A DNA stretch of 64,000 nucleotides from NCBI RefSeq assembly GCF_030065545.1, contig NZ_JASJNC010000002.1, forward strand, positions 248,001-312,000. The letters are read 5' to 3'. Under the pieces are notes generated by a model that was not told the DNA's origin, did no database searches, and was given only the letters and a program-made list of their open reading frames with translations. A program made the position numbers and the translations under genes. The DNA comes from Marinicella marina. GTDB lineage: Bacteria; Pseudomonadota; Gammaproteobacteria; Xanthomonadales; Marinicellaceae. This document shows positions 7,845 through 62,957 of this stretch, in pieces (position 1 is the stretch's first letter; each line of letters starts with the position of its first letter).

Positions 7845-9170
7845 TCAATCAAAACCAGAGGCAAACAGCGGATCGTAGTTTTCCTCATAGACTGGACTCA
7901 AATCTGCGCCATTAACCACACCCAAAGGTGAATAATCATCGTAACCGGGGAAAATATAGCCCAGGAAACGGTTGCGTTGGCGTTTGATCAAAACCTCACT
8001 GACTACATCTCGATAATCAACAGTGGCATTGACATCGTCACCTTCAAATAACTGCTCGGGAGCCAATCCAGGAAATTGGCCATGGAAGCCGCCATTGACA
8101 TTGTCACCAATAATAAACATGGGGTTGGCGTAGCCATGATCGGTGCTGCTGGCGCTGTTTTCGTAAGCACGACGCCCAAATTCAGACTGTACCATAATGG
8201 TGAATCGACCATTGTGTGAGGCAGTTAAATCTTGGTACAAAGCATACAGCCCGGCCGACAACTCACTGGTCAGGTCCGCAAATTGTCCTTCAGTTCCAGT
8301 TCCTTGTCCGACGTGTGTATCCCAGCCACCAGTCGGCACATAAGCCACCTCAAGGTCAACATCGCTTTTATACAGTTGTGCCACCATGCGCAATTGTTCT
8401 CCAAGGAAGCCTTCAGGGTAACTGGCACTATTTCCAGGAACATAGTTAGCCCAATCAATGGCTTGAATGATGTCTGATGCTTTAAGGATTTGGTGGTTAA
8501 CCAGCTGTTCCAATGAAACTGGATTTTCTGTAATTTCTTGTAAAATATCCTGCATGGTGTCGCCCCAGGTCCAATGCCCGTCAGTCAAAGCAAAATCACC
8601 CGGGTTACTTAAAACCAATGCGGTGGGGTCGCCTAAAACAGCATCTGTATTGTCGTAGGATGGCACTATGGATGGCATAACGGCATCATTTGGGGTATGT
8701 AACGAAGAGTTAAAGTATCTGGTCAGCCAGCCTGTGCCCAAGGAATTGCTACCCTGAAAACCCAGCTCTAAAAACCGAGTAGCCTCAAAATGTGAACGGT
8801 TGGCCTCAACCAGTCCGGTGGCATGCACAATCGCCATTTTATTACTGTTAAATAAATTGGCCAAACCAGTGGCAGAAGGGTGCATGCCAAAAGCATTTTG
8901 ACCATTCAGTGGCAAAGACACGTTATTAGGGATATGTAAAGAAGGGCGCAATACATTGCTGTATTGGTTGTAATCATTGCCTGATCTTGGTGGTACCATG
9001 TTCAAGCCATCCATGCCGCCATTCAAAAACACATAGACCAACAGATCTCTGCCATTCCCAGAACCGCCTTTAAGCAGCTGATTGGCAAATCCCAGTTGCA
9101 TACCACCCAGGCCAGCCACACTGACTAAGCCTGAACCTTTGAGAAAATTTCTGCGATTTATTTTTTTCAT
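7845..9170 (-). CDS. DUF1501 protein, Tat-exported, with C-terminal GFD tail
   Basis: This 441-aa protein starts with a twin-arginine signal, INRRNFLKGSG, followed by a hydrophobic stretch. It continues with the DUF1501 core (YVFLNGGMDGLNMVPP near residue 46, HFEATRFLELG near 125, GGWDTHVGQGTG near 281, and FGRRAYENSASSTDHGY near 334). DUF1501 proteins have a sulfatase/phosphatase-like fold and are usually encoded with DUF1800 proteins, as here (10 bp gap). The function is not established. It ends DPLFASGFD, one of five exported proteins in the window with this kind of tail. Export by Tat suggests it folds, probably around a metal, before crossing the membrane. Confidence 0.88.
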   Translation of the reverse strand: MKKINRRNFLKGSGLVSVAGLGGMQLGFANQLLKGGSGNGRDLLVYVFLNGGMDGLNMVPPRSGNDYNQYSNVLRPSLHIPNNVSLPLNGQNAFGMHPSATGLANLFNSNKMAIVHATGLVEANRSHFEATRFLELGFQGSNSLGTGWLTRYFNSSLHTPNDAVMPSIVPSYDNTDAVLGDPTALVLSNPGDFALTDGHWTWGDTMQDILQEITENPVSLEQLVNHQILKASDIIQAIDWANYVPGNSASYPEGFLGEQLRMVAQLYKSDVDLEVAYVPTGGWDTHVGQGTGTEGQFADLTSELSAGLYALYQDLTASHNGRFTIMVQSEFGRRAYENSASSTDHGYANPMFIIGDNVNGGFHGQFPGLAPEQLFEGDDVNATVDYRDVVSEVLIKRQRNRFLGYIFPGYDDYSPLGVVNGADLSPVYEENYDPLFASGFD

Positions 9171-9180
9171 GATGATCTCC

Positions 9181-10986
9181 TCAACGGTAGCTGAATTCAG
9201 CGGTTAAAAATAGGGTTGAAACCACAGACACCAGCCTTTCGCTGTTGTAACTGGGCCAATCATTGTGAAAAATATCGATGGCTGTGTCACGATCAGTCGG
9301 TATGGGTACATCTGGCGCGACGTCCATATATGACATGAATTTAGCCAATTTATCTTGGGTGTTTACATCCGGGGGATGGCCACAGGCCCTTTCATACCAG
9401 AAGTTCACAAGGTTGTTGGCAGTTCTATCGGCTTCTGCAGGTATGCCTTCGGCAGTGATGGCCAGGATGTTATTGAACGAGGCGTCGTTGTTGTTACCGT
9501 CCCTGAAGCGACAAATCCACTGGATGAATTTCCAAGTCGACATATTACTGGAGGCGCCCAGCCAGTGAGATTTTGTATCAGGATAACCATTGGGTGAAGT
9601 CCAACCGAAGGGTGGTTGGCCTGAGTTTCTGAAACCCCAATAATGCCAGCTGGAATATTCTTCATTGGGATTAAAAGCAAAACTATATTCAATCTGACGC
9701 ATGGCCGCGATGGTTTTTTCAAAAGGGCGTTTGATTTTTTCACCCCAGGTGTTGAGAAACTCAGTGGATTTTAACAACACTTCCATGGCCTGTTTGATCT
9801 GGTCACTGGCTTGCCAATTTTGTTGTAAGGTGTTGGCCACTTGGTCGACAATGCTTTGTGGTGGCTCATCAGCAATGAACCGACGACAAAGTTTATAAGC
9901 CAAAAACTGTGCAGTGGCAGGATGTTCTGCCAGCATGTCTAAAATGTCATTAACGTCTTTTTCTGGGTCATTACTGTCATACAGAAAGTCAGTGCCCATG
10001 ACACGCTTGACTCCTTGGTCATGCCAGTCAGGTCTGAACAAAAAAGTACCTGTTGGTGCTTGGCTTAAATCAACCGGATCACCAGGCGCAGGATACAAAT
10101 ATTGATAGTCTTGCCAACTGGCACCACTGAAAGACCAACCAGTCAAAGCCCGAGCCAGTTCCACCACATCCTCTTCCACATAGCCCACACGACGGCCTTG
10201 GTTATCAGTAGGTACGTCTTGCCAGGGTAGATGGCCGTAGTAGTTTTTTGCGCCAATGGTGTGTAATTCCAATAATTCACGGGCAAAATTTTCATTGGGC
10301 GCTGACTGTTCATTAACACCGTTGCCCAGATAGGACAGCATGCAATTTGAACGGGTCACTTGATACATCATGTTGCGAAAGTTGCCTAAGGCCTCAGGGC
10401 GGATGACATCACGGTCATAATGCACAAACATGGGTTGAATGTTGTCTCCTTCGAGGTAAACATTGAAGTGATTGTGCCAAAAATCTGTCATCGTCTCGAA
10501 CAACTGTCTGTTGCTGTTGATGGCACGGATAAAAGCAGCATAAGAGGTTTCACGACCCGGCCTGATATGTACATCCCAGGGAATTTCAGCACCATTTGGA
10601 AGGTGCACGTGTTCTTGGAAAAACTGTTGTTGGGTTTTGTTTAACGTTTCAAAGCCTTGCATCAACATGTTATCAGTCGTGGTGTCTGATATGTTCTGTG
10701 GATCGAGTTGTTCATCTATGTAGGCTAAAATTCGATCGGTCTCGGTGTTACCAGGTAATGATTCGATGTGGTTGATGTCGGCCCGTGATGGTCCAAATGC
10801 CATCTTACTTAACACCCTGTGGGTCAGATTAGGCGTATCTATTGTGCCGCCCAATACTGTGGGCGTTTGTGCCAAGTTCTGTGCAGAATTTTTCGGTTTT
10901 GTGCGTGGTTTCTTTAACGGTGATTGACTCTTTTCAGCTGATGGAATGGCATCTCGTGGATGGTATTTTTTAGCAAAAATGTTCAT
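9181..10986 (-). CDS. DUF1800 protein, partner of DUF1501
   Basis: I choose the ATG at 10986 because a GAGAGG Shine-Dalgarno precedes it by about 7 nt; the longer in-frame extension upstream has no such site. The resulting 601-aa protein shows the DUF1800 pattern: HRVLSKMAFGPSRADI near residue 53, FWHNHFNVYLE near 160, ENFARELLELHTIG near 230, and an ALTGWSFSG segment near 275. There is no obvious signal peptide. The first 45 residues are a Lys/Pro-rich low-complexity leader. It is co-transcribed with the Tat-exported DUF1501 gene, so it might be co-exported with its partner or act inside the cell. The molecular function of the family is unknown. Confidence 0.87.
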   Translation of the reverse strand: MNIFAKKYHPRDAIPSAEKSQSPLKKPRTKPKNSAQNLAQTPTVLGGTIDTPNLTHRVLSKMAFGPSRADINHIESLPGNTETDRILAYIDEQLDPQNISDTTTDNMLMQGFETLNKTQQQFFQEHVHLPNGAEIPWDVHIRPGRETSYAAFIRAINSNRQLFETMTDFWHNHFNVYLEGDNIQPMFVHYDRDVIRPEALGNFRNMMYQVTRSNCMLSYLGNGVNEQSAPNENFARELLELHTIGAKNYYGHLPWQDVPTDNQGRRVGYVEEDVVELARALTGWSFSGASWQDYQYLYPAPGDPVDLSQAPTGTFLFRPDWHDQGVKRVMGTDFLYDSNDPEKDVNDILDMLAEHPATAQFLAYKLCRRFIADEPPQSIVDQVANTLQQNWQASDQIKQAMEVLLKSTEFLNTWGEKIKRPFEKTIAAMRQIEYSFAFNPNEEYSSWHYWGFRNSGQPPFGWTSPNGYPDTKSHWLGASSNMSTWKFIQWICRFRDGNNNDASFNNILAITAEGIPAEADRTANNLVNFWYERACGHPPDVNTQDKLAKFMSYMDVAPDVPIPTDRDTAIDIFHNDWPSYNSERLVSVVSTLFLTAEFSYR

Positions 10987-11151
10987 GTGTTTACCTCTCT
11001 TTTGCTTAGAATAAATCAAGCTTAAGAGAATAATTGCGATATTGCTCACACTAAAAGTAAAAAATACCACAGAATGTGTGCCATTTAGCAAAATCTTAAC
11101 CCTTGCAGTGGGCATAATTAACGTTGAAGCACTTTTTATTCAATTCAAACC

Positions 11152-11841
11152 ATGAAACTACCATTTAACAAGACCCAAATCATCTGCATGCTGTTGCTGT
11201 GCACTTCGGTGCTCAATGCCACCACCCATGTGGTTACCGTCAGAGACAATTCATTCAGTCCGGTTACGGTGGTGATTGAGGCAGGTGACACGGTCCGCTG
11301 GGTCAATGAGGGCCCTGGTGCTCACAATGTTTATTCTGTGGGTAATTTCAGGTGTGCCAATGGTTGTGAGGCCAATGGTGGTAATGGCGATCCTTCCAAC
11401 GCAGCTTGGGTGGCAGAAGTGGTTTTCAGGAACCCAGGTACGTTTCCCTACGAATGCCAACCTCACGTTCAATTTGGCATGGTTGGCACCGTGGTGGTAC
11501 AAGCGCCAAACACAGGAGTCACGCATCAAGTTGAAACTGGACTGGAGAATGAATTCACACCGAATGAATTAACCATCACGGCTGGCGATGTGGTTTTTTT
11601 CAGTAACCAAGGCGGTGTGCACAATATAGAAACTGCTGATGGCAGTTTAACTTGTGCCGAAGGCTGCGAGGGGGATGGCCAAATAGTCAACACCGATCCC
11701 ACCGGTTTTCAATGGGAGTTTTATCTGCGTTTTGATGAGGTTGCTAGCGTGCCATACTTTTGTGCCAACCCAGCTCATACCGAACAAACTGGGTTGATCA
11801 ATGTGATTTCAGATGTGTTATTCAGTAACGGCTTTCAATAA
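11152..11841 (+). CDS. Secreted double-cupredoxin protein with C-terminal GFQ tail
   Basis: This is a 229-aa exported blue-copper-type protein. After a signal peptide (about residues 1-23) there are two plastocyanin-like domains. Domain 1 (about 24-120) has a full type-1 copper set: His in GAHNV, then C-x2-H-x4-M in YECQPHVQFGM. Domain 2 (about 121-220) keeps His in GVHNI and a Cys and His in FCANPAHTEQTGL, but the spacing is longer and Leu replaces the axial Met, so copper binding there may be altered or lost. Extra Cys pairs (RCANGCE, TCAEGCE) suggest a disulfide in each domain. It is divergent from the DUF1800/DUF1501 operon and ends DVLFSNGFQ, a tail shared with DUF1501. An electron-transfer role is inferred. 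Confidence 0.85.
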   Translation: MKLPFNKTQIICMLLLCTSVLNATTHVVTVRDNSFSPVTVVIEAGDTVRWVNEGPGAHNVYSVGNFRCANGCEANGGNGDPSNAAWVAEVVFRNPGTFPYECQPHVQFGMVGTVVVQAPNTGVTHQVETGLENEFTPNELTITAGDVVFFSNQGGVHNIETADGSLTCAEGCEGDGQIVNTDPTGFQWEFYLRFDEVASVPYFCANPAHTEQTGLINVISDVLFSNGFQ

Positions 11842-39336: not shown

Positions 39337-40581
39337 TCAATCATCATAATCAAAGTCAGCACGAAAGATTATGTCCAAATTCAATTCTACCGAACCGCTT
39401 TCACAAAACGCGCCATCAGGTCTGAACGCGCCACGCTGGTCATACTCAAGGACATCATTGGTGGCAGAAATACAGGCGCTGAGGGGCACCATGTCAACAG
39501 CAGGACTGTTCACTGCGGGTAAAAAAGTGTCAGTGAAACCGCCATTATTAGTCAAGCTGGCTAGCAGGGCATCGGTCATTTCAAGATCACCCACAGCGGA
39601 GAATTCACAACTGGCATCACTGACGATGTTGTAACCAGATGATGTGGGTTTGTCACCGGCTTGACAGTTATCAATGAAGCCGCCATCAGGTGTCCAAAGA
39701 ATCGAGCTTTGGATGTCCAACACATCGCTGCCATCGAAACTGAAATGTGACAGGTTTTGACCTGATTCAGAAACAAAAGTACTGAAACGGATTTTTGCAC
39801 CACCATTGGTTGTTCTGATGCCGCCGCCCTCATTGTTGGTGACGGTTGAATTGGTCATCGACATGAAACCTTGTTCAATTTCAATGGCTTTACCACCGTT
39901 GTCATTGCCAGTGAAAGTAGATGCGGTAATGAACATCTCACAGCGGGAACAGAAAATAGCGGGTCCCCAGATGTTGGTGAAGCCCAAATCCTCGGTGAAG
40001 TTATCTTTAAACACGGTGTTGTGGATATTAATGTCTGCTCCTAAGGTAGCGAATAATCCACCACCGGTGTTGGCACTGTTGTTGGTGATGATGACTTGAT
40101 CGGTGAATAACTGCGTGCTCACATCATTGACTTTAATGGCACCACCGCCATTGTTATCCGCGGTGGCTGCTCTGCCGCCGGTGAGGGTCAGGTTTTTTAA
40201 GCTGAGACTGCGGCCATTGAACACTTCGAAAATGCGGTTGTTGCCATTGGCATTGATCACCGTTTCTGGGCCTGAACCAATGATGGTGATGTAGCCGGTT
40301 GTTACATCAAGGTCGCCTGCTGCAGCCGTGTCATCATCACCCAACAGGGTTAATTCATGGATGTTGGGCCCCAGCTCGATGGTGTGCAAGCCGCCCAGCG
40401 CATTGGCTTCCATGATGGCCGCACGCAAACTACAAAAGCCAAAACCGATGGGTATTTCACAAATGCCATCACCAGGGTTGTTATCAACTTCGTCACTCAG
40501 CACAATCACTTGAAAGGTTAAGGCCGTCGTTTGTTGTAACCACAACAGCATCAGAAGGGACAATATCAATTTAGATTTCAT
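39337..40581 (-). CDS. CSLREA-type secreted beta-helix protein with FDYDD tail
   Basis: This 414-aa secreted protein starts at ATG 40581 with a signal peptide (MKSKLILSLLMLLWLQQTTAL). A CSLREA-like motif (FCSLRAAIMEANA) lies near residue 51. A right-handed parallel beta-helix follows, rich in Asn/Gly repeats (LTLTGGRAATADNNGGG; TNNSANTGGG; STVTNNEGG). The C-terminus is DIIFRADFDYDD, a variant of the D-x-x-F-x-x-[GD]-F-[DQ] tail seen on other exported proteins in the window. The role may be adhesion or surface display. No catalytic motif is visible. Confidence 0.8.
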   Translation of the reverse strand: MKSKLILSLLMLLWLQQTTALTFQVIVLSDEVDNNPGDGICEIPIGFGFCSLRAAIMEANALGGLHTIELGPNIHELTLLGDDDTAAAGDLDVTTGYITIIGSGPETVINANGNNRIFEVFNGRSLSLKNLTLTGGRAATADNNGGGAIKVNDVSTQLFTDQVIITNNSANTGGGLFATLGADINIHNTVFKDNFTEDLGFTNIWGPAIFCSRCEMFITASTFTGNDNGGKAIEIEQGFMSMTNSTVTNNEGGGIRTTNGGAKIRFSTFVSESGQNLSHFSFDGSDVLDIQSSILWTPDGGFIDNCQAGDKPTSSGYNIVSDASCEFSAVGDLEMTDALLASLTNNGGFTDTFLPAVNSPAVDMVPLSACISATNDVLEYDQRGAFRPDGAFCESGSVELNLDIIFRADFDYDD

Positions 40582-42852: not shown

Positions 42853-44592
42853 ATGATTTTATTCCGCTTATCAAAACTAATTCTAGGCTTGAGCTTATCA
42901 GTATTTCCAATCATTTCGCACGCTGTTGGGGCTTGTGATCCCGGTGAAATAGAAACGCCTGCCAGCTTTTCAGGAGTTATCGAACCAGCAACAGCAAGAG
43001 ATCTCAATCCTGATCCTGATATTTTAGAAGTGTACTTGACGGCGCGACCTGCAACCTGGGATTTTGGCTTGGGAAATGAGGTAGACGTCTGGACTTACAA
43101 TGGGGTGATTCCAGGGCCCACGTTACAAGCAAAAGTGGGTGATACACTGATTGTTAATTTCTGTAATGGTTTACCAGACGAGTCAACCATACATTGGCAT
43201 GGCTTAGAAACCCCGGCGAATATGGATGGCTCTAACATTTCTCAAGGTACAGTGCCTCCAGGTGGTACGTTCCGTTATGAAATCCCTCTATTTCATTCAG
43301 GTACCTTTTGGTACCACCCACATTTTCAGACCCATCGTCAAGTAGAGAAAGGCCTATACGGTGTATTAGTAGTCCGAGATCCCGATCAGGATAAAGCTTT
43401 GGGTATTCCTGAGAAAGAACACATCATGGTTTTGGATGACGTTTTGATTGATGAGAACAATCAAATCACTGAACCTTTTTTAGGCGATAAAAAAGCCATT
43501 GCTCTAGAAAAGCTCAACGGTCGTGAGGGTAATGTTTTACTGGTTAACGGTGTGAGTCAACCACAGATGACATTTTCACGTTCTGAACCGCACCGCATTC
43601 GGATGGTCAATGCAGCCAATTCACGTTTTATGCGAACCACATTACAAATTCATGACTTTATCAGGATAGGTGGTGACCAAGGGTTACTGGAAGAGGCACA
43701 AGTTCTCAGTTCAATTCCATCTAATAATACAGTCAATCAAAATGATGCTGTGAATAGGCACTTAACCATCATTCCCGATAATGGCGTGTTACTAACCCCG
43801 GGTGAGCGTGCTGATATTGTTTTTAATCCATTGCCTTATGATGCCACTTTTGAGTTGCGATGGCATGACACAGTCAGAGGACGGCATGATGTTGAGTTTC
43901 TTCCAGACGGCACCATAGACCTAACCCATGGAATTCGTGACGGTGATAATCCCAATAAGATTTTTGGTACAGTGCAATTTACAGGGGCGGAATTGAAAAC
44001 CCCATTTGTGGCACCATCACCGCTCAGGATCATTCCCAGAATTGATGTGACAGATGCGCCTACTCTGCCACTGGTTATGGGGCATACCTTGCCCGATTGG
44101 GATACCGGCGATGTTAAATTTTTTGTCCAAGCCATGGGTATGCCGTTTCCAATGCTAACACCTGATGATGTGCATACTGTTGTTGCTAATCGTACCTATG
44201 TATGGGAAGTGAAAAACCTCACCGAAGGTCGACATAATTTTCATACCCATGGATTTCGCTTTCAACACATTGAAACTGAATATAAGGATTTGGACTTTCC
44301 AGATGATCCAGCGCTTAATTTTACAGAACCTGCGGCATTCATAGAAGATAAGGACACCATCATGCTTGAACCTCGTCCTGGTTTAATCCGTGGCAGGAGT
44401 TTTTCACTGACTCGCCTTGCCGTGAATTTCAGTGACAGCGGCAGAGAAAAACAAATAGATGCATTTGGCAAAATGCCAGAAGGTGATGAATCAGGAGGTT
44501 GGTTGGCTCATTGCCATATTTTGGAACATTCAGCCAGCGGCATGATGACCTTTTTTCAGGTTGATGATCCGTTTCGTAATGGGTTTGATTAG
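42853..44592 (+). CDS. Multicopper oxidase, exported, with C-terminal GFD tail
   Basis: This 579-aa secreted oxidase has a signal peptide ending ISHAVG. All four copper motifs are present: IHWHGLETP near residue 116, FWYHPHFQTHRQ near 152, NFHTHGFRFQH near 465, and the type-1 C-x-H set LAHCHILEHSASGMM near 557. It would oxidise phenols, metals or bilirubin-like substrates using oxygen. The last residues are VDDPFRNGFD, the same tail as in the DUF1501 protein. The ribosome site is weak. It is a single gene. Confidence 0.93.
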   Translation: MILFRLSKLILGLSLSVFPIISHAVGACDPGEIETPASFSGVIEPATARDLNPDPDILEVYLTARPATWDFGLGNEVDVWTYNGVIPGPTLQAKVGDTLIVNFCNGLPDESTIHWHGLETPANMDGSNISQGTVPPGGTFRYEIPLFHSGTFWYHPHFQTHRQVEKGLYGVLVVRDPDQDKALGIPEKEHIMVLDDVLIDENNQITEPFLGDKKAIALEKLNGREGNVLLVNGVSQPQMTFSRSEPHRIRMVNAANSRFMRTTLQIHDFIRIGGDQGLLEEAQVLSSIPSNNTVNQNDAVNRHLTIIPDNGVLLTPGERADIVFNPLPYDATFELRWHDTVRGRHDVEFLPDGTIDLTHGIRDGDNPNKIFGTVQFTGAELKTPFVAPSPLRIIPRIDVTDAPTLPLVMGHTLPDWDTGDVKFFVQAMGMPFPMLTPDDVHTVVANRTYVWEVKNLTEGRHNFHTHGFRFQHIETEYKDLDFPDDPALNFTEPAAFIEDKDTIMLEPRPGLIRGRSFSLTRLAVNFSDSGREKQIDAFGKMPEGDESGGWLAHCHILEHSASGMMTFFQVDDPFRNGFD

Positions 44593-44649: not shown

Positions 44650-45198
44650 TTATGACTGGCGTCGCAATCTAGGTGACACCATCAATAACATCAATACAGC
44701 CAAAAGAATCAAAGCCCATTGAGTCAAAGTTGGAGCAGGAACTGGAGGTGTTACCGGACCTGAGCCACTGCCACTCACACCCAGCGTGTAATTCACAGTT
44801 GCTGAGCCGAAGAAAGAGTCAACTTGAATAACAAATTGTCCTGTTGTGGGTGCAATGAAATTCAGCGTGTTGTTGGTGGTTCCACCACCACTGTCAGCAA
44901 AGAAATAATCAACACCATTCAAATCACCAACTTGTGCGTTGTTGTCAGTGACATCAAATACCCACAAGATTGATTCTACGTCTGAAGTCAGAGTAATAGT
45001 AACCGTATCACCGGCATCGGCATCAAAAGTGTACCAAGGGTGCGCCGAGGCAGTACCACCTGTATCAGTATATGTATCAGTATAAGTACCATCACCATTA
45101 CCGTTTAATGATGTGATGCTGTCACCCGGGCCATCGCCAGCGACAGCACTGCCAACCAGTCCGCAGACCATTGCGATTGAAAGAAGTAGTTTTTTCAT
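44650..45198 (-). CDS. IPTL-CTERM sorted surface protein
   Basis: This 182-aa exported protein has a signal peptide (MKKLLLSIAMVCGLVGSAVA), a beta-rich DVTDNN/DTYTDT-type middle region with the FDADAGDTVTITL pattern of secreted pre-peptidase-like domains, and a Gly/Pro-rich linker. The C-terminus has the three-part sorting signal: PTLTQWALI, a hydrophobic helix, and a basic end SPRLRRQS. That is the IPTL-CTERM pattern, processed by an exosortase of the XrtH type in other bacteria. No exosortase is in the window, so it must be elsewhere. The function of the mature domain is unknown. Confidence 0.88.
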   Translation of the reverse strand: MKKLLLSIAMVCGLVGSAVAGDGPGDSITSLNGNGDGTYTDTYTDTGGTASAHPWYTFDADAGDTVTITLTSDVESILWVFDVTDNNAQVGDLNGVDYFFADSGGGTTNNTLNFIAPTTGQFVIQVDSFFGSATVNYTLGVSGSGSGPVTPPVPAPTLTQWALILLAVLMLLMVSPRLRRQS

Positions 45199-61811: not shown

Positions 61812-61826
61812 CATACTATTAGTATG
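61812..61826. promoter_or_regulatory. Palindrome covering the LRR-gene start codon
   Basis: CATACT-att-AGTATG is a perfect 15-bp palindrome whose right arm includes the ATG of the LRR gene. It could be an operator or a weak mRNA hairpin that hides the start codon. There is no Shine-Dalgarno nearby. Confidence 0.4.
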
Positions 61827-62957
61827 AATAAAGCCAACATAGAGATACTTCTGGGCTTGTTGATTTGCTTGTTGATGCCATGTGCTCATGCTGACCTCGA
61901 TTTCAATACAGTTTGCCTGCAACCGGGGATGAATTCACCCATCCTTGAATGCAATGCACTGGTCAACCTGTACAACATCACTGATGGTGATAATTGGATC
62001 AACAACAGCAATTGGGGCAACGCCGATGTCGACAGTTGGTTTGGGGTTTCTGCTTTTGGGCCCGTTGAAAAATTTGTTTGGTTTTTGGATTTAAACGATA
62101 ATAATTTGAATGGCATCATACCCAGCAACATCGGTGACTTGACTCAGTTGGTGTCATTGAATCTGAGTAACAATGATTTATTCAGTTTCATTCCATCAAG
62201 TATTGGTGATTTGGCTTCATTGGAATTTTTATTACTGGGCAACAATCAATTGACGGGAACAATACCCAATGAACTGTCAAGCTTAACTGCCTTGAGGATT
62301 CTTCAGCTACAAAACAATCAGCTCTCAGGTGAAATCATGCCCTACGTAACGGCAATGACTGATTTGACTGATTTGTGGATTGATGACAATGATTTCGCAG
62401 AAACCATCCCTGCAGAGATAGCACAAATGGTGTCTTTGGAATATTTTTCAGCCCAGAATGTCGGCTTCACTGGATTTTTACCCAATGAAATTACTGAACT
62501 ACAAGCTTTGGAATTTTTATTGTTACCGGGTAATGACCTCAGCGGTAAACTGCCGCATTGCATCGGACGCATGAGTGGTTTGAAACAGCTTGACCTGAGT
62601 AACAATCAGCTCAGTGGCCGCCTACCAGTTTCTTGGGGCGCGCTGAATGGTTTTGAATTCATTGGCCTGACCAACAATCAACTTTCAGGTGAAATACCTG
62701 ATTCTTGGTCACAAATGACGGCACTTTTCGGCTTTTATTTGAACCAAAATCGATTGACTGGCATGGTGCCTGTTGGTTTTGGCAACATGAATGCCATGAA
62801 CCAATTTTACCTCGATGGCAATGACATGTCAGGCAGTGTGATTCCTGCAGCCATCGATGCTTGGTACCAACAAATCCCCAACAGAAGTATTCAATTCCAA
62901 GGCTTCACCGATGAAGTTTTTTATGCTGATTTTGACGGTGATTGTGTGGTTCAGTGA
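61824..62957 (+). CDS. Secreted leucine-rich-repeat protein with C-terminal FDG tail
   Basis: This 377-aa exported protein has a signal peptide (to about residue 23), then a short cap region with NALVNLYNITDGDNWINNS, and about ten LRRs of the plant-like type (L-x-x-L-x-L-x-x-N-x-L-x-G-x-I-P), for example LVSLNLSNNDLFSFIPS near residue 108. The final repeats are followed by a C-terminal segment ending DEVFYADFDGDCVVQ, which contains the window's recurring tail in a variant form. It is probably a surface or secreted binding protein. The convergent lipoprotein gene overlaps its 3' end by 7 bp. Confidence 0.87.
   Translation: MNKANIEILLGLLICLLMPCAHADLDFNTVCLQPGMNSPILECNALVNLYNITDGDNWINNSNWGNADVDSWFGVSAFGPVEKFVWFLDLNDNNLNGIIPSNIGDLTQLVSLNLSNNDLFSFIPSSIGDLASLEFLLLGNNQLTGTIPNELSSLTALRILQLQNNQLSGEIMPYVTAMTDLTDLWIDDNDFAETIPAEIAQMVSLEYFSAQNVGFTGFLPNEITELQALEFLLLPGNDLSGKLPHCIGRMSGLKQLDLSNNQLSGRLPVSWGALNGFEFIGLTNNQLSGEIPDSWSQMTALFGFYLNQNRLTGMVPVGFGNMNAMNQFYLDGNDMSGSVIPAAIDAWYQQIPNRSIQFQGFTDEVFYADFDGDCVVQ

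What the first reader, a model, noticed from the sequence alone, without database searches (positions are those of the whole stretch)
7845..11841. Shared C-terminal nonapeptide tail on unrelated exported proteins
Seen in sequence: the DUF1501 protein ends DPLFASGFD, the adjacent double cupredoxin ends DVLFSNGFQ and the multicopper oxidase at 42853-44592 ends DDPFRNGFD. The CSLREA beta-helix protein (39337-40581) ends DIIFRADFD plus three residues, and the LRR protein (61824-62957) ends DEVFYADFD plus six. All align without gaps as D-x-x-F-x-x-[GD]-F-[DQ]. Five different folds share nothing else. Such a tail is not IPTL-CTERM, PEP-CTERM or GlyGly-CTERM, and has no hydrophobic helix or basic end. 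Inference: it may be a secretion, sorting or maturation signal recognised by a dedicated machine, possibly a type II-like exporter. This is the best candidate here for an undescribed system.
Basis: partly seen in the sequence, partly recalled or inferred. Interest (0 to 1): 0.78.

Follow-up and report, generated by a model that had tools for sequence, protein, structure and literature searches.

The report
Shared nine-residue tail on exported proteins
Many unrelated exported proteins of this marine bacterium and its relatives end in nearly the same nine residues, a tag that no database model we searched describes and that tends to occur in genomes with one particular kind of secretion machine, so it may be a simple address label for protein export.

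Summary
The tail is real. All five six-frame matches to D..F..[GD]F[DEQ] in the window lie 0-6 residues before the stop of an exported protein. In a 679-kb sample of the genome (a Marinicella relative), 21 of 546 genes carry it at the C-terminus; 1000 permuted motifs gave a mean of 0.05, maximum 2. The usual form is D-[LVI]-[IL]-F-x-[NDS]-G-F-[EDQ]. It is not a mobile DNA element, and no NCBIfam or Pfam model was seen to cover it. Of 370 Gammaproteobacteria only two, both of this order, had more than one match; other classes were not searched. It is mostly C-terminal, but also sits just after signal peptides and in linkers. Across 397 genomes of the order it goes with one of two type II secretion systems ("T2SS-A"): 77 of 83 tail-bearing genomes against 26 of 314 others; two of the six misses carry another T2SS-A gene. 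Best reading: a linear sorting or secretion tag for proteins exported by T2SS-A. Co-distribution is shown; recognition and transport are inferred. Exceptions in both directions remain.

The parts
7845..9170 (-). DUF1501 protein with Tat signal; ends DPLFASGFD (tail 7848-7874)
   Evidence: three named Marinicella orthologues end DPLFASGFE, DPIFASGFD and, one residue shorter, DPIFASGF; other genera of the family end DRIFNSGFE or DNIYASGFE
7848..7874 (-). tail DPLFASGFD
11152..11841 (+). double cupredoxin with signal peptide; ends DVLFSNGFQ (tail 11812-11838)
   Evidence: orthologue tails DLLFRSSFE, DVLFASDFE, DVLFSHGFD, QNVFSDSFE; AlphaFold2 gives residues 224-229 pLDDT below 50, after the last cupredoxin strand
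11812..11838 (+). tail DVLFSNGFQ
42853..44592 (+). multicopper oxidase with signal peptide; ends DDPFRNGFD (tail 44563-44589)
44563..44589 (+). tail DDPFRNGFD
39337..40581 (-). CSLREA beta-helix protein with choice-of-anchor Q domain (NF041518, residues 368-431 of the 445-residue ORF, above cut-off) directly before the tail DIIFRADFD + YDD
39349..39375 (-). tail DIIFRADFD
61824..62957 (+). leucine-rich-repeat protein with signal peptide; ends DEVFYADFD + GDCVVQ (tail 62910-62936)
62910..62936 (+). tail DEVFYADFD

Best explanation
The nonapeptide D-[LVI]-[IL]-F-x-[NDS]-G-F-[EDQ] is a linear sorting tag of Lysobacterales. Shown: it sits on proteins that look exported, usually as the last residues, sometimes just after the signal peptide or in a linker, and is under amino-acid-level selection. 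Inferred: after the protein folds in the periplasm the exposed tag docks, perhaps as an induced strand, on the periplasmic face of the type II secretion system called T2SS-A here (GspC with its PDZ domain, or the N-domains of its secretin GspD), which then carries the protein across the outer membrane.
For: C-terminal enrichment about 390-fold over permuted motifs, with no clearly cytoplasmic carrier among 21. Tail outside the confidently modelled fold in the cupredoxin. Mean pairwise DNA identity 0.29 before, 0.27 after and 0.68 in the tail (38 tails). Within the class, restricted to the order (370 genomes). Co-occurrence with T2SS-A: 77 of 83 genomes with at least 3 tail matches, 26 of 314 others; the same picture at thresholds 1 and 5 (88 of 103 against 15 of 294; 73 of 78 against 30 of 319) and with an earlier, narrower profile (61 of 65 against 42 of 332); by genus 29 of 32 against 7 of 63. 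Two of the six misses (G014 whole, G024 partial) have type-A GspE. None of 38 genomes with a secretin of intermediate score reaches 3 tail matches. G018, of the window's own family, and G025 have neither tails nor a T2SS secretin over the cut-off. Tailless G031, G036 and G052 have only the other T2SS. 6 of 43 tailed proteins match a choice-of-anchor Q domain. Precedent: an exposed 9-residue loop of PelI is a T2SS signal that binds GspC and GspD (PMC7949064, passages).
Against: 26 of 314 tail-poor genomes have T2SS-A, so it is not sufficient. G449 and G473 (97-98% complete; 7 and 4 matches) have tails but no type-A GspD or GspE; G009 and G440 (25 and 24 matches) have none either, though fragmented, and G015 (outside the 397) likewise. 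The GspC-A PDZ domain is as common without tails (18 of 19) as in the mostly tail-bearing set (21 of 21). Few T2SS-A loci have a tailed gene nearby (4 of 21 stretches). The profile used contains tails from some of the genomes tested. Genomes are related, so p-values overstate independence. No binding or secretion data.
Confidence: 0.55

Rival explanations
1. The tail acts after export: proteins leave through the T2SS by other signals, and the tag holds them on the cell surface or in the matrix by binding an unidentified surface partner (in role like GlyGly-CTERM).
For: Tails directly follow a choice-of-anchor Q domain in some carriers. In Vibrio cholerae the GlyGly-CTERM works together with a separate T2SS signal (PMC13393428, passages). 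It explains T2SS co-occurrence without T2SS recognition.
Against: No hydrophobic or basic part; the position is flexible (after the signal peptide, linker). No receptor or peptidase was looked for, so none is excluded.
Confidence: 0.22
2. T2SS-A is a bystander: tail and T2SS-A are both old in the order and were lost in the same lineages, while a different unidentified machine reads the tail.
For: Exceptions in both directions; G449 and G473 have tails without T2SS-A; related genomes are not independent.
Against: Co-occurrence holds across families: outside the two families f1 and f12, 22 of 25 tail-bearing genera have T2SS-A and 5 T2SS-A genera lack tails. In family f2 all three genomes with 3 or more matches (G468, G560, G694) have T2SS-A.
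Confidence: 0.15
3. The tail is a functional ligand-binding peptide (calcium, glycan or matrix) unrelated to export.
For: Acidic and aromatic residues; linker positions between domains in a few proteins.
Against: Carriers share no activity (oxidase, M11 peptidase, endonuclease I, LRR, beta-helix); strong preference for the very end (55 of 117 C-terminal tails at distance 0); order restriction and link to T2SS-A unexplained.
Confidence: 0.06
4. Sequence relic: the end is a truncated first strand of a larger domain (one protein has IFADGFETGDTSAW), or spread as mobile DNA.
For: L157 holds the longer form beside the short one.
Against: Flanking DNA is no more alike than chance and most codons vary; tails persist in orthologues; of the 28 non-C-terminal cases listed only L157 continues in that way.
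Confidence: 0.02

Closest known systems
GlyGly-CTERM / rhombosortase (TIGR03501; Haft and Varghese 2011, PMC3237569, passages)
   Same: Short C-terminal region shared by otherwise unrelated exported proteins, many per genome; works with type II secretion in Vibrio cholerae (PMC13393428, passages).
   Different: No Gly-rich motif, no membrane helix, no basic end; not matched by the NCBIfam models; also found just after signal peptides and in linkers.
IPTL-CTERM, PEP-CTERM and other exosortase tags
   Same: C-terminal sorting tags on many proteins; an IPTL-CTERM protein is in this window (44650-45198).
   Different: Motif, helix and basic end are absent here.
T2SS recognition loop of PelI/Pel3 (PMC7949064, passages)
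   Same: Short exposed flexible segment (9 residues in PelI) on a folded periplasmic protein, binding GspC and GspD.
   Different: Described for one protein family and as part of a composite signal; here one linear motif recurs on many unrelated proteins.
Type IX secretion C-terminal domains (recalled, no call)
   Same: Shared C-terminal export signal on diverse proteins.
   Different: Those are folded domains of some 70-100 residues in Bacteroidota (recalled); here nine residues, in Lysobacterales.

Membership tests
GlyGly-CTERM, PEP-CTERM, IPTL-CTERM, MYXO-CTERM class | motif, then membrane helix, then basic residues at the C-terminus | tested here: not met
   In C-terminal cases the motif ends the protein or is followed by at most 14 residues, too few for a membrane helix.
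GlyGly-CTERM, PEP-CTERM, IPTL-CTERM, MYXO-CTERM class | match to a curated model of such a tag | tested here: not met
   No NCBIfam or Pfam model over the tail of the five window proteins. In 43 tailed proteins no tag model leads the tallies, where a shared one would (the 10 rarest of 35 families are not shown in each).
C-terminal protein sorting tag in the broad sense | recurs at the C-termini of many unrelated exported proteins of one genome, and not of cytoplasmic ones | tested here: met
   21 of 546 genes in a sample; none clearly cytoplasmic, seven judged by eye.
C-terminal protein sorting tag in the broad sense | co-distribution with its processing or export machine | tested here: inconclusive
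   Strong with T2SS-A but with exceptions in both directions; no peptidase or receptor searched for.
Substrate of a type II secretion system | Sec or Tat signal and folding in the periplasm | tested here: inconclusive
   Signal-peptide heuristic and Tat model support export; folding in the periplasm is inferred from the kinds of domain.
Substrate of a type II secretion system | secretion lost in a T2SS mutant | not testable with these tools
   Needs an experiment.

The most novel reading that the evidence does not exclude
The tail is the first transferable linear address label for type II secretion: a nine-residue motif that by itself marks folded proteins of any kind for one T2SS, read at either end or in a linker, in a whole order of bacteria.
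Probability: 0.35. Interest if true: 0.93.

Novelty: new variant of a known kind. Interest (0 to 1): 0.82.

Why it matters
[quoted passage not shown] A recurrent nine-residue motif tied to one T2SS type would give a testable linear signal, would predict on the order of 80-110 exported proteins in this genome (77 profile matches; 21 per 679 kb scaled to 3.46 Mb), and could offer a short tag for secreting proteins of choice.

Tried and rejected
PDZ loss as the switch: all 21 GspC-A proteins of the first set (19 from tail-bearing genomes; G050 with 0 matches and G461 with 1 are the others) match a Pfam PDZ model at E<=0.01, and so do 18 of 19 from tail-poor T2SS-A genomes. The 19 come from 20 stretches, covering 20 of the 26 such genomes; no GspC was found in G506, whose stretch ends early, and that of G639 is short. 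So the PDZ does not explain tailless T2SS-A genomes.

Linkage of tailed genes to the T2SS-A locus: striking in the own genome (a tailed gene at each end of the fetched 20 kb), on one side in G016, but only 4 of 21 stretches show any tailed gene; dropped as evidence.

M36 peptidase relatives: one search listed matches to models named for the myxosortase and rhombosortase tags (2 and 1 of 43 proteins). The one looked at (L094) scores 64.5 bits against a cut-off of 1500 and matches only a stretch far along the model (positions 996-1168 of 1604); it is not shown to be such a peptidase. Dropped as evidence.

Mobile DNA or gene conversion: rejected (one caveat: the second F is TTT in 36 of 38). Chance: rejected. 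A known tag: rejected.

Structures: the DUF1501 model is unusable (mean pLDDT 28 with four sequences); the cupredoxin model is usable for its core only (mean 68).

Literature: seven searches listed no description of this tail in the held open-access library. The 18 papers holding one of six exact heptapeptide strings are off-topic by title. Subscription journals were not covered.

Not done: a search outside the class; a tree-aware test; a search for a receptor or peptidase.
Full report
WHAT WAS CHECKED. The window is C12:248001-312000 of a 3.46-Mb genome (99.75% complete); named relatives found with the cupredoxin are three Marinicella loci and one Lysobacterales MAG. All five tails are as described, and they are the only six-frame matches to D..F..[GD]F[DEQ] in 64 kb.

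ENRICHMENT. I took 40 stretches of the own genome, 679 kb with the window. A simple gene caller gave 546 genes of at least 100 residues; 21 have the motif within 12 residues of the stop and 1 has it elsewhere. 1000 permuted motifs gave a mean of 0.054 and a maximum of 2; 200 rounds of shuffled C-termini a mean of 0.055 and a maximum of 1. None of the 21 has a predicted membrane helix beyond residue 60. A crude export test passes 14 of 21, against 95 of 525 other genes; the other seven, judged by eye, are one Tat protein, three cut by an end of a stretch or contig and three with a hydrophobic N-terminus after a later start. The window had been chosen for its tails; without it 16 remain. A ten-column profile of 22 tails finds 77 places in the whole genome at E<=10.

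CONSENSUS AND POSITION. In 158 loci fetched around profile matches (five places occur twice, four of the own genome and one of G029; three single hits from outside the order are included), 117 matches are within 15 residues of the stop (55 at distance 0), 9 near the start of the frame, 19 internal and 13 could not be placed. The C-terminal tails read D(109 of 117)-[LVPI]-I(104)-F(116)-[AKR]-[NDS]-G(112)-F(117)-[EDQ]. These were selected by the profile, so the consensus leans towards it. Seven of the nine near the start stand, by eye, directly behind a signal peptide (L132, L136, L140, L152, L156, L160, L232), and so does L157, counted as internal. One protein family carries two copies in a row at its end (L082, L111-L113, L129); the first copies of that family are among the 19 internal ones. 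So the motif is an exposed linear element with a strong preference for the end.

SELECTION. For 38 tails of the own genome mean pairwise DNA identity is 0.29 in the 30 bases before, 0.68 in the tail and 0.27 in the 30 bases after the stop; D, G and the first F use their synonymous codons, while the second F is TTT in 36 of 38. Orthologues keep the tail while its letters change within the pattern, with small departures: DUF1501 in other genera of the family ends DRIFNSGFE or DNIYASGFE, in M. meishanensis one residue short, DPIFASGF; the cupredoxin ends DLLFRSSFE in one Marinicella and QNVFSDSFE in the Lysobacterales MAG at 48% overall identity. In the cupredoxin model the last six residues fall below pLDDT 50, after the last strand.

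DISTRIBUTION. In 370 Gammaproteobacteria drawn evenly (at least 90% completeness asked for), only the own genome and G035 of the same order have more than one match at E<=0.1; three others have one each, fewer than the E-values would predict. Other classes were not searched. Within the order a 40-row profile at E<=0.1 finds a match in 79 of 397 genomes. A 44-row profile at E<=0.5, with about 25 candidates scored per genome, finds one in 103 of 397 and three or more in 83. The 44-row profile includes tails from nine genomes where the narrower one was weak (G030, G059, G449, G468, G482, G489, G501, G514, G560); these are also in the test set.

THE EXPORTER. A search for the T2SS secretin in 61 relatives showed two kinds. 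In a tree of 25 rows they fall into two clades with full support. Type A is that of own contig C19, an operon gspC-D-E-F whose GspC has a PDZ domain. Type B is that of own contig C12, a cluster with gspE-F, pseudopilins, K, L, M and D; no PDZ was found in the ten ORFs of it that I scanned. I call B Xps-like from recall of gene order; this was not tested. A more distant secretin (G053, which I take to be Xcs-like, from recall) falls on the side of A; A without it is supported at 82/83 only. A type-A profile over the same 397 genomes gives 141 matches at E<=1e-80: 102 below 1e-150, plus one fragment, G004, counted as type A, and 38 of intermediate score. Tail-bearing (3 or more) and type A: 77; tail without A: 6; A without tail: 26; neither: 288 (odds ratio 142). 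At thresholds 1 and 5 it is 88, 15, 15, 279 and 73, 5, 30, 289. With the earlier 40-row profile (3 or more) it is 61, 4, 42, 290. By genus it is 29, 3, 7 and 56 of 95. I then looked for type-A GspE in the misses: G014 has it whole and G024 in part; G009, G440, G449 and G473 do not, nor does G015, a tail-bearing genome outside the 397. This recheck covered the misses and some controls (G018, G025, G031, G052, G435, G441, none of them type A), not all genomes, so a corrected 79 of 83 is one-sided. G009 and G440 are fragmented assemblies; G449 and G473 look like true exceptions with few tails. Related genomes are not independent, so the odds ratio matters more than the p-value. Tail and T2SS-A also go together within families: in f2 the three genomes with 3 or more matches all have T2SS-A, in f12 the four tail-bearing genera have it, and in f8 the two richest (G489, G501) do while G449 and G473 do not.

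ROLE. The tail stands where other lineages put sorting tags. Of 43 tailed proteins of the own genome (those with a readable C-terminus in hand, not all 77 places), 6 match a choice-of-anchor Q domain at E<=0.01; in the two looked at singly the match is above the curated cut-off and lies just before the tail (window 39337-40581; L096). Other carriers include cupredoxin, multicopper oxidase, LRR, beta-helix, endonuclease I, lactonase, sorbosone dehydrogenase, M11 peptidase, FG-GAP and cadherin-like proteins. A weak match to M36 peptidase models was checked and dropped.

MECHANISM. Shown: a motif on exported-looking proteins, selected at the amino-acid level, flexible in position, that goes with T2SS-A. 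Inferred: T2SS-A reads it. The known case nearest in mechanism is the exposed 9-residue loop of PelI that binds GspC and GspD (PMC7949064, passages). In V. [quoted passage not shown] euvesicatoria has a single helix in place of a PDZ fold (PMC11981180, passages). But PDZ models match 18 of 19 GspC-A from tail-poor genomes as well as 21 of 21 from the other set, so the reading surface is not identified. A surface-retention role after export fits almost as well.

NOVELTY. No NCBIfam or Pfam model was seen over the tail, and seven literature searches listed no description (open-access library only). As a sorting tag it is a new variant; as a linear T2SS signal it would be categorically new.

Noticed in passing
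44650-45198: An IPTL-CTERM protein (TIGR04174 just above cut-off) lies beside the tailed multicopper oxidase, so the genome appears to hold two different C-terminal tag classes side by side.
   Followed up: no
7845-11115: DUF1800 and DUF1501 genes stand as a pair on the same strand, yet only DUF1501 has the tail; the pair seems to recur in relatives (not tested). Do untailed partners travel with tailed ones?
   Followed up: no
L171:427-19276 (own genome C19): The fetched T2SS-A stretch has a tailed gene at each end; a Ser/Thr kinase with TPR repeats and an ECF sigma factor run divergently, two genes upstream of gspC.
   Followed up: partly
L171 and L249: The T2SS-A locus holds gspC, D, E and F, with an ABC ATPase gene (FtsE in L249) directly after gspF, but no pseudopilin was seen in the ORFs scanned; where its GspG-M come from is unclear.
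   Followed up: partly
L082, L111, L112, L113, L129: One protein family ends in two tails in a row followed by a short Pro/Cys segment ending CP(S/A/V)F.
   Followed up: no
L157: Right after the signal peptide the protein has DLIFSDGFEPFDFASIFADGFETGDTSAW: the short motif and a longer relative, a hint at the origin of the tail.
   Followed up: no
L013 and L033 (ends of contigs C7 and C12): Two nearly identical tailed gene ends sit at contig ends, perhaps a recent duplication that broke the assembly.
   Followed up: no
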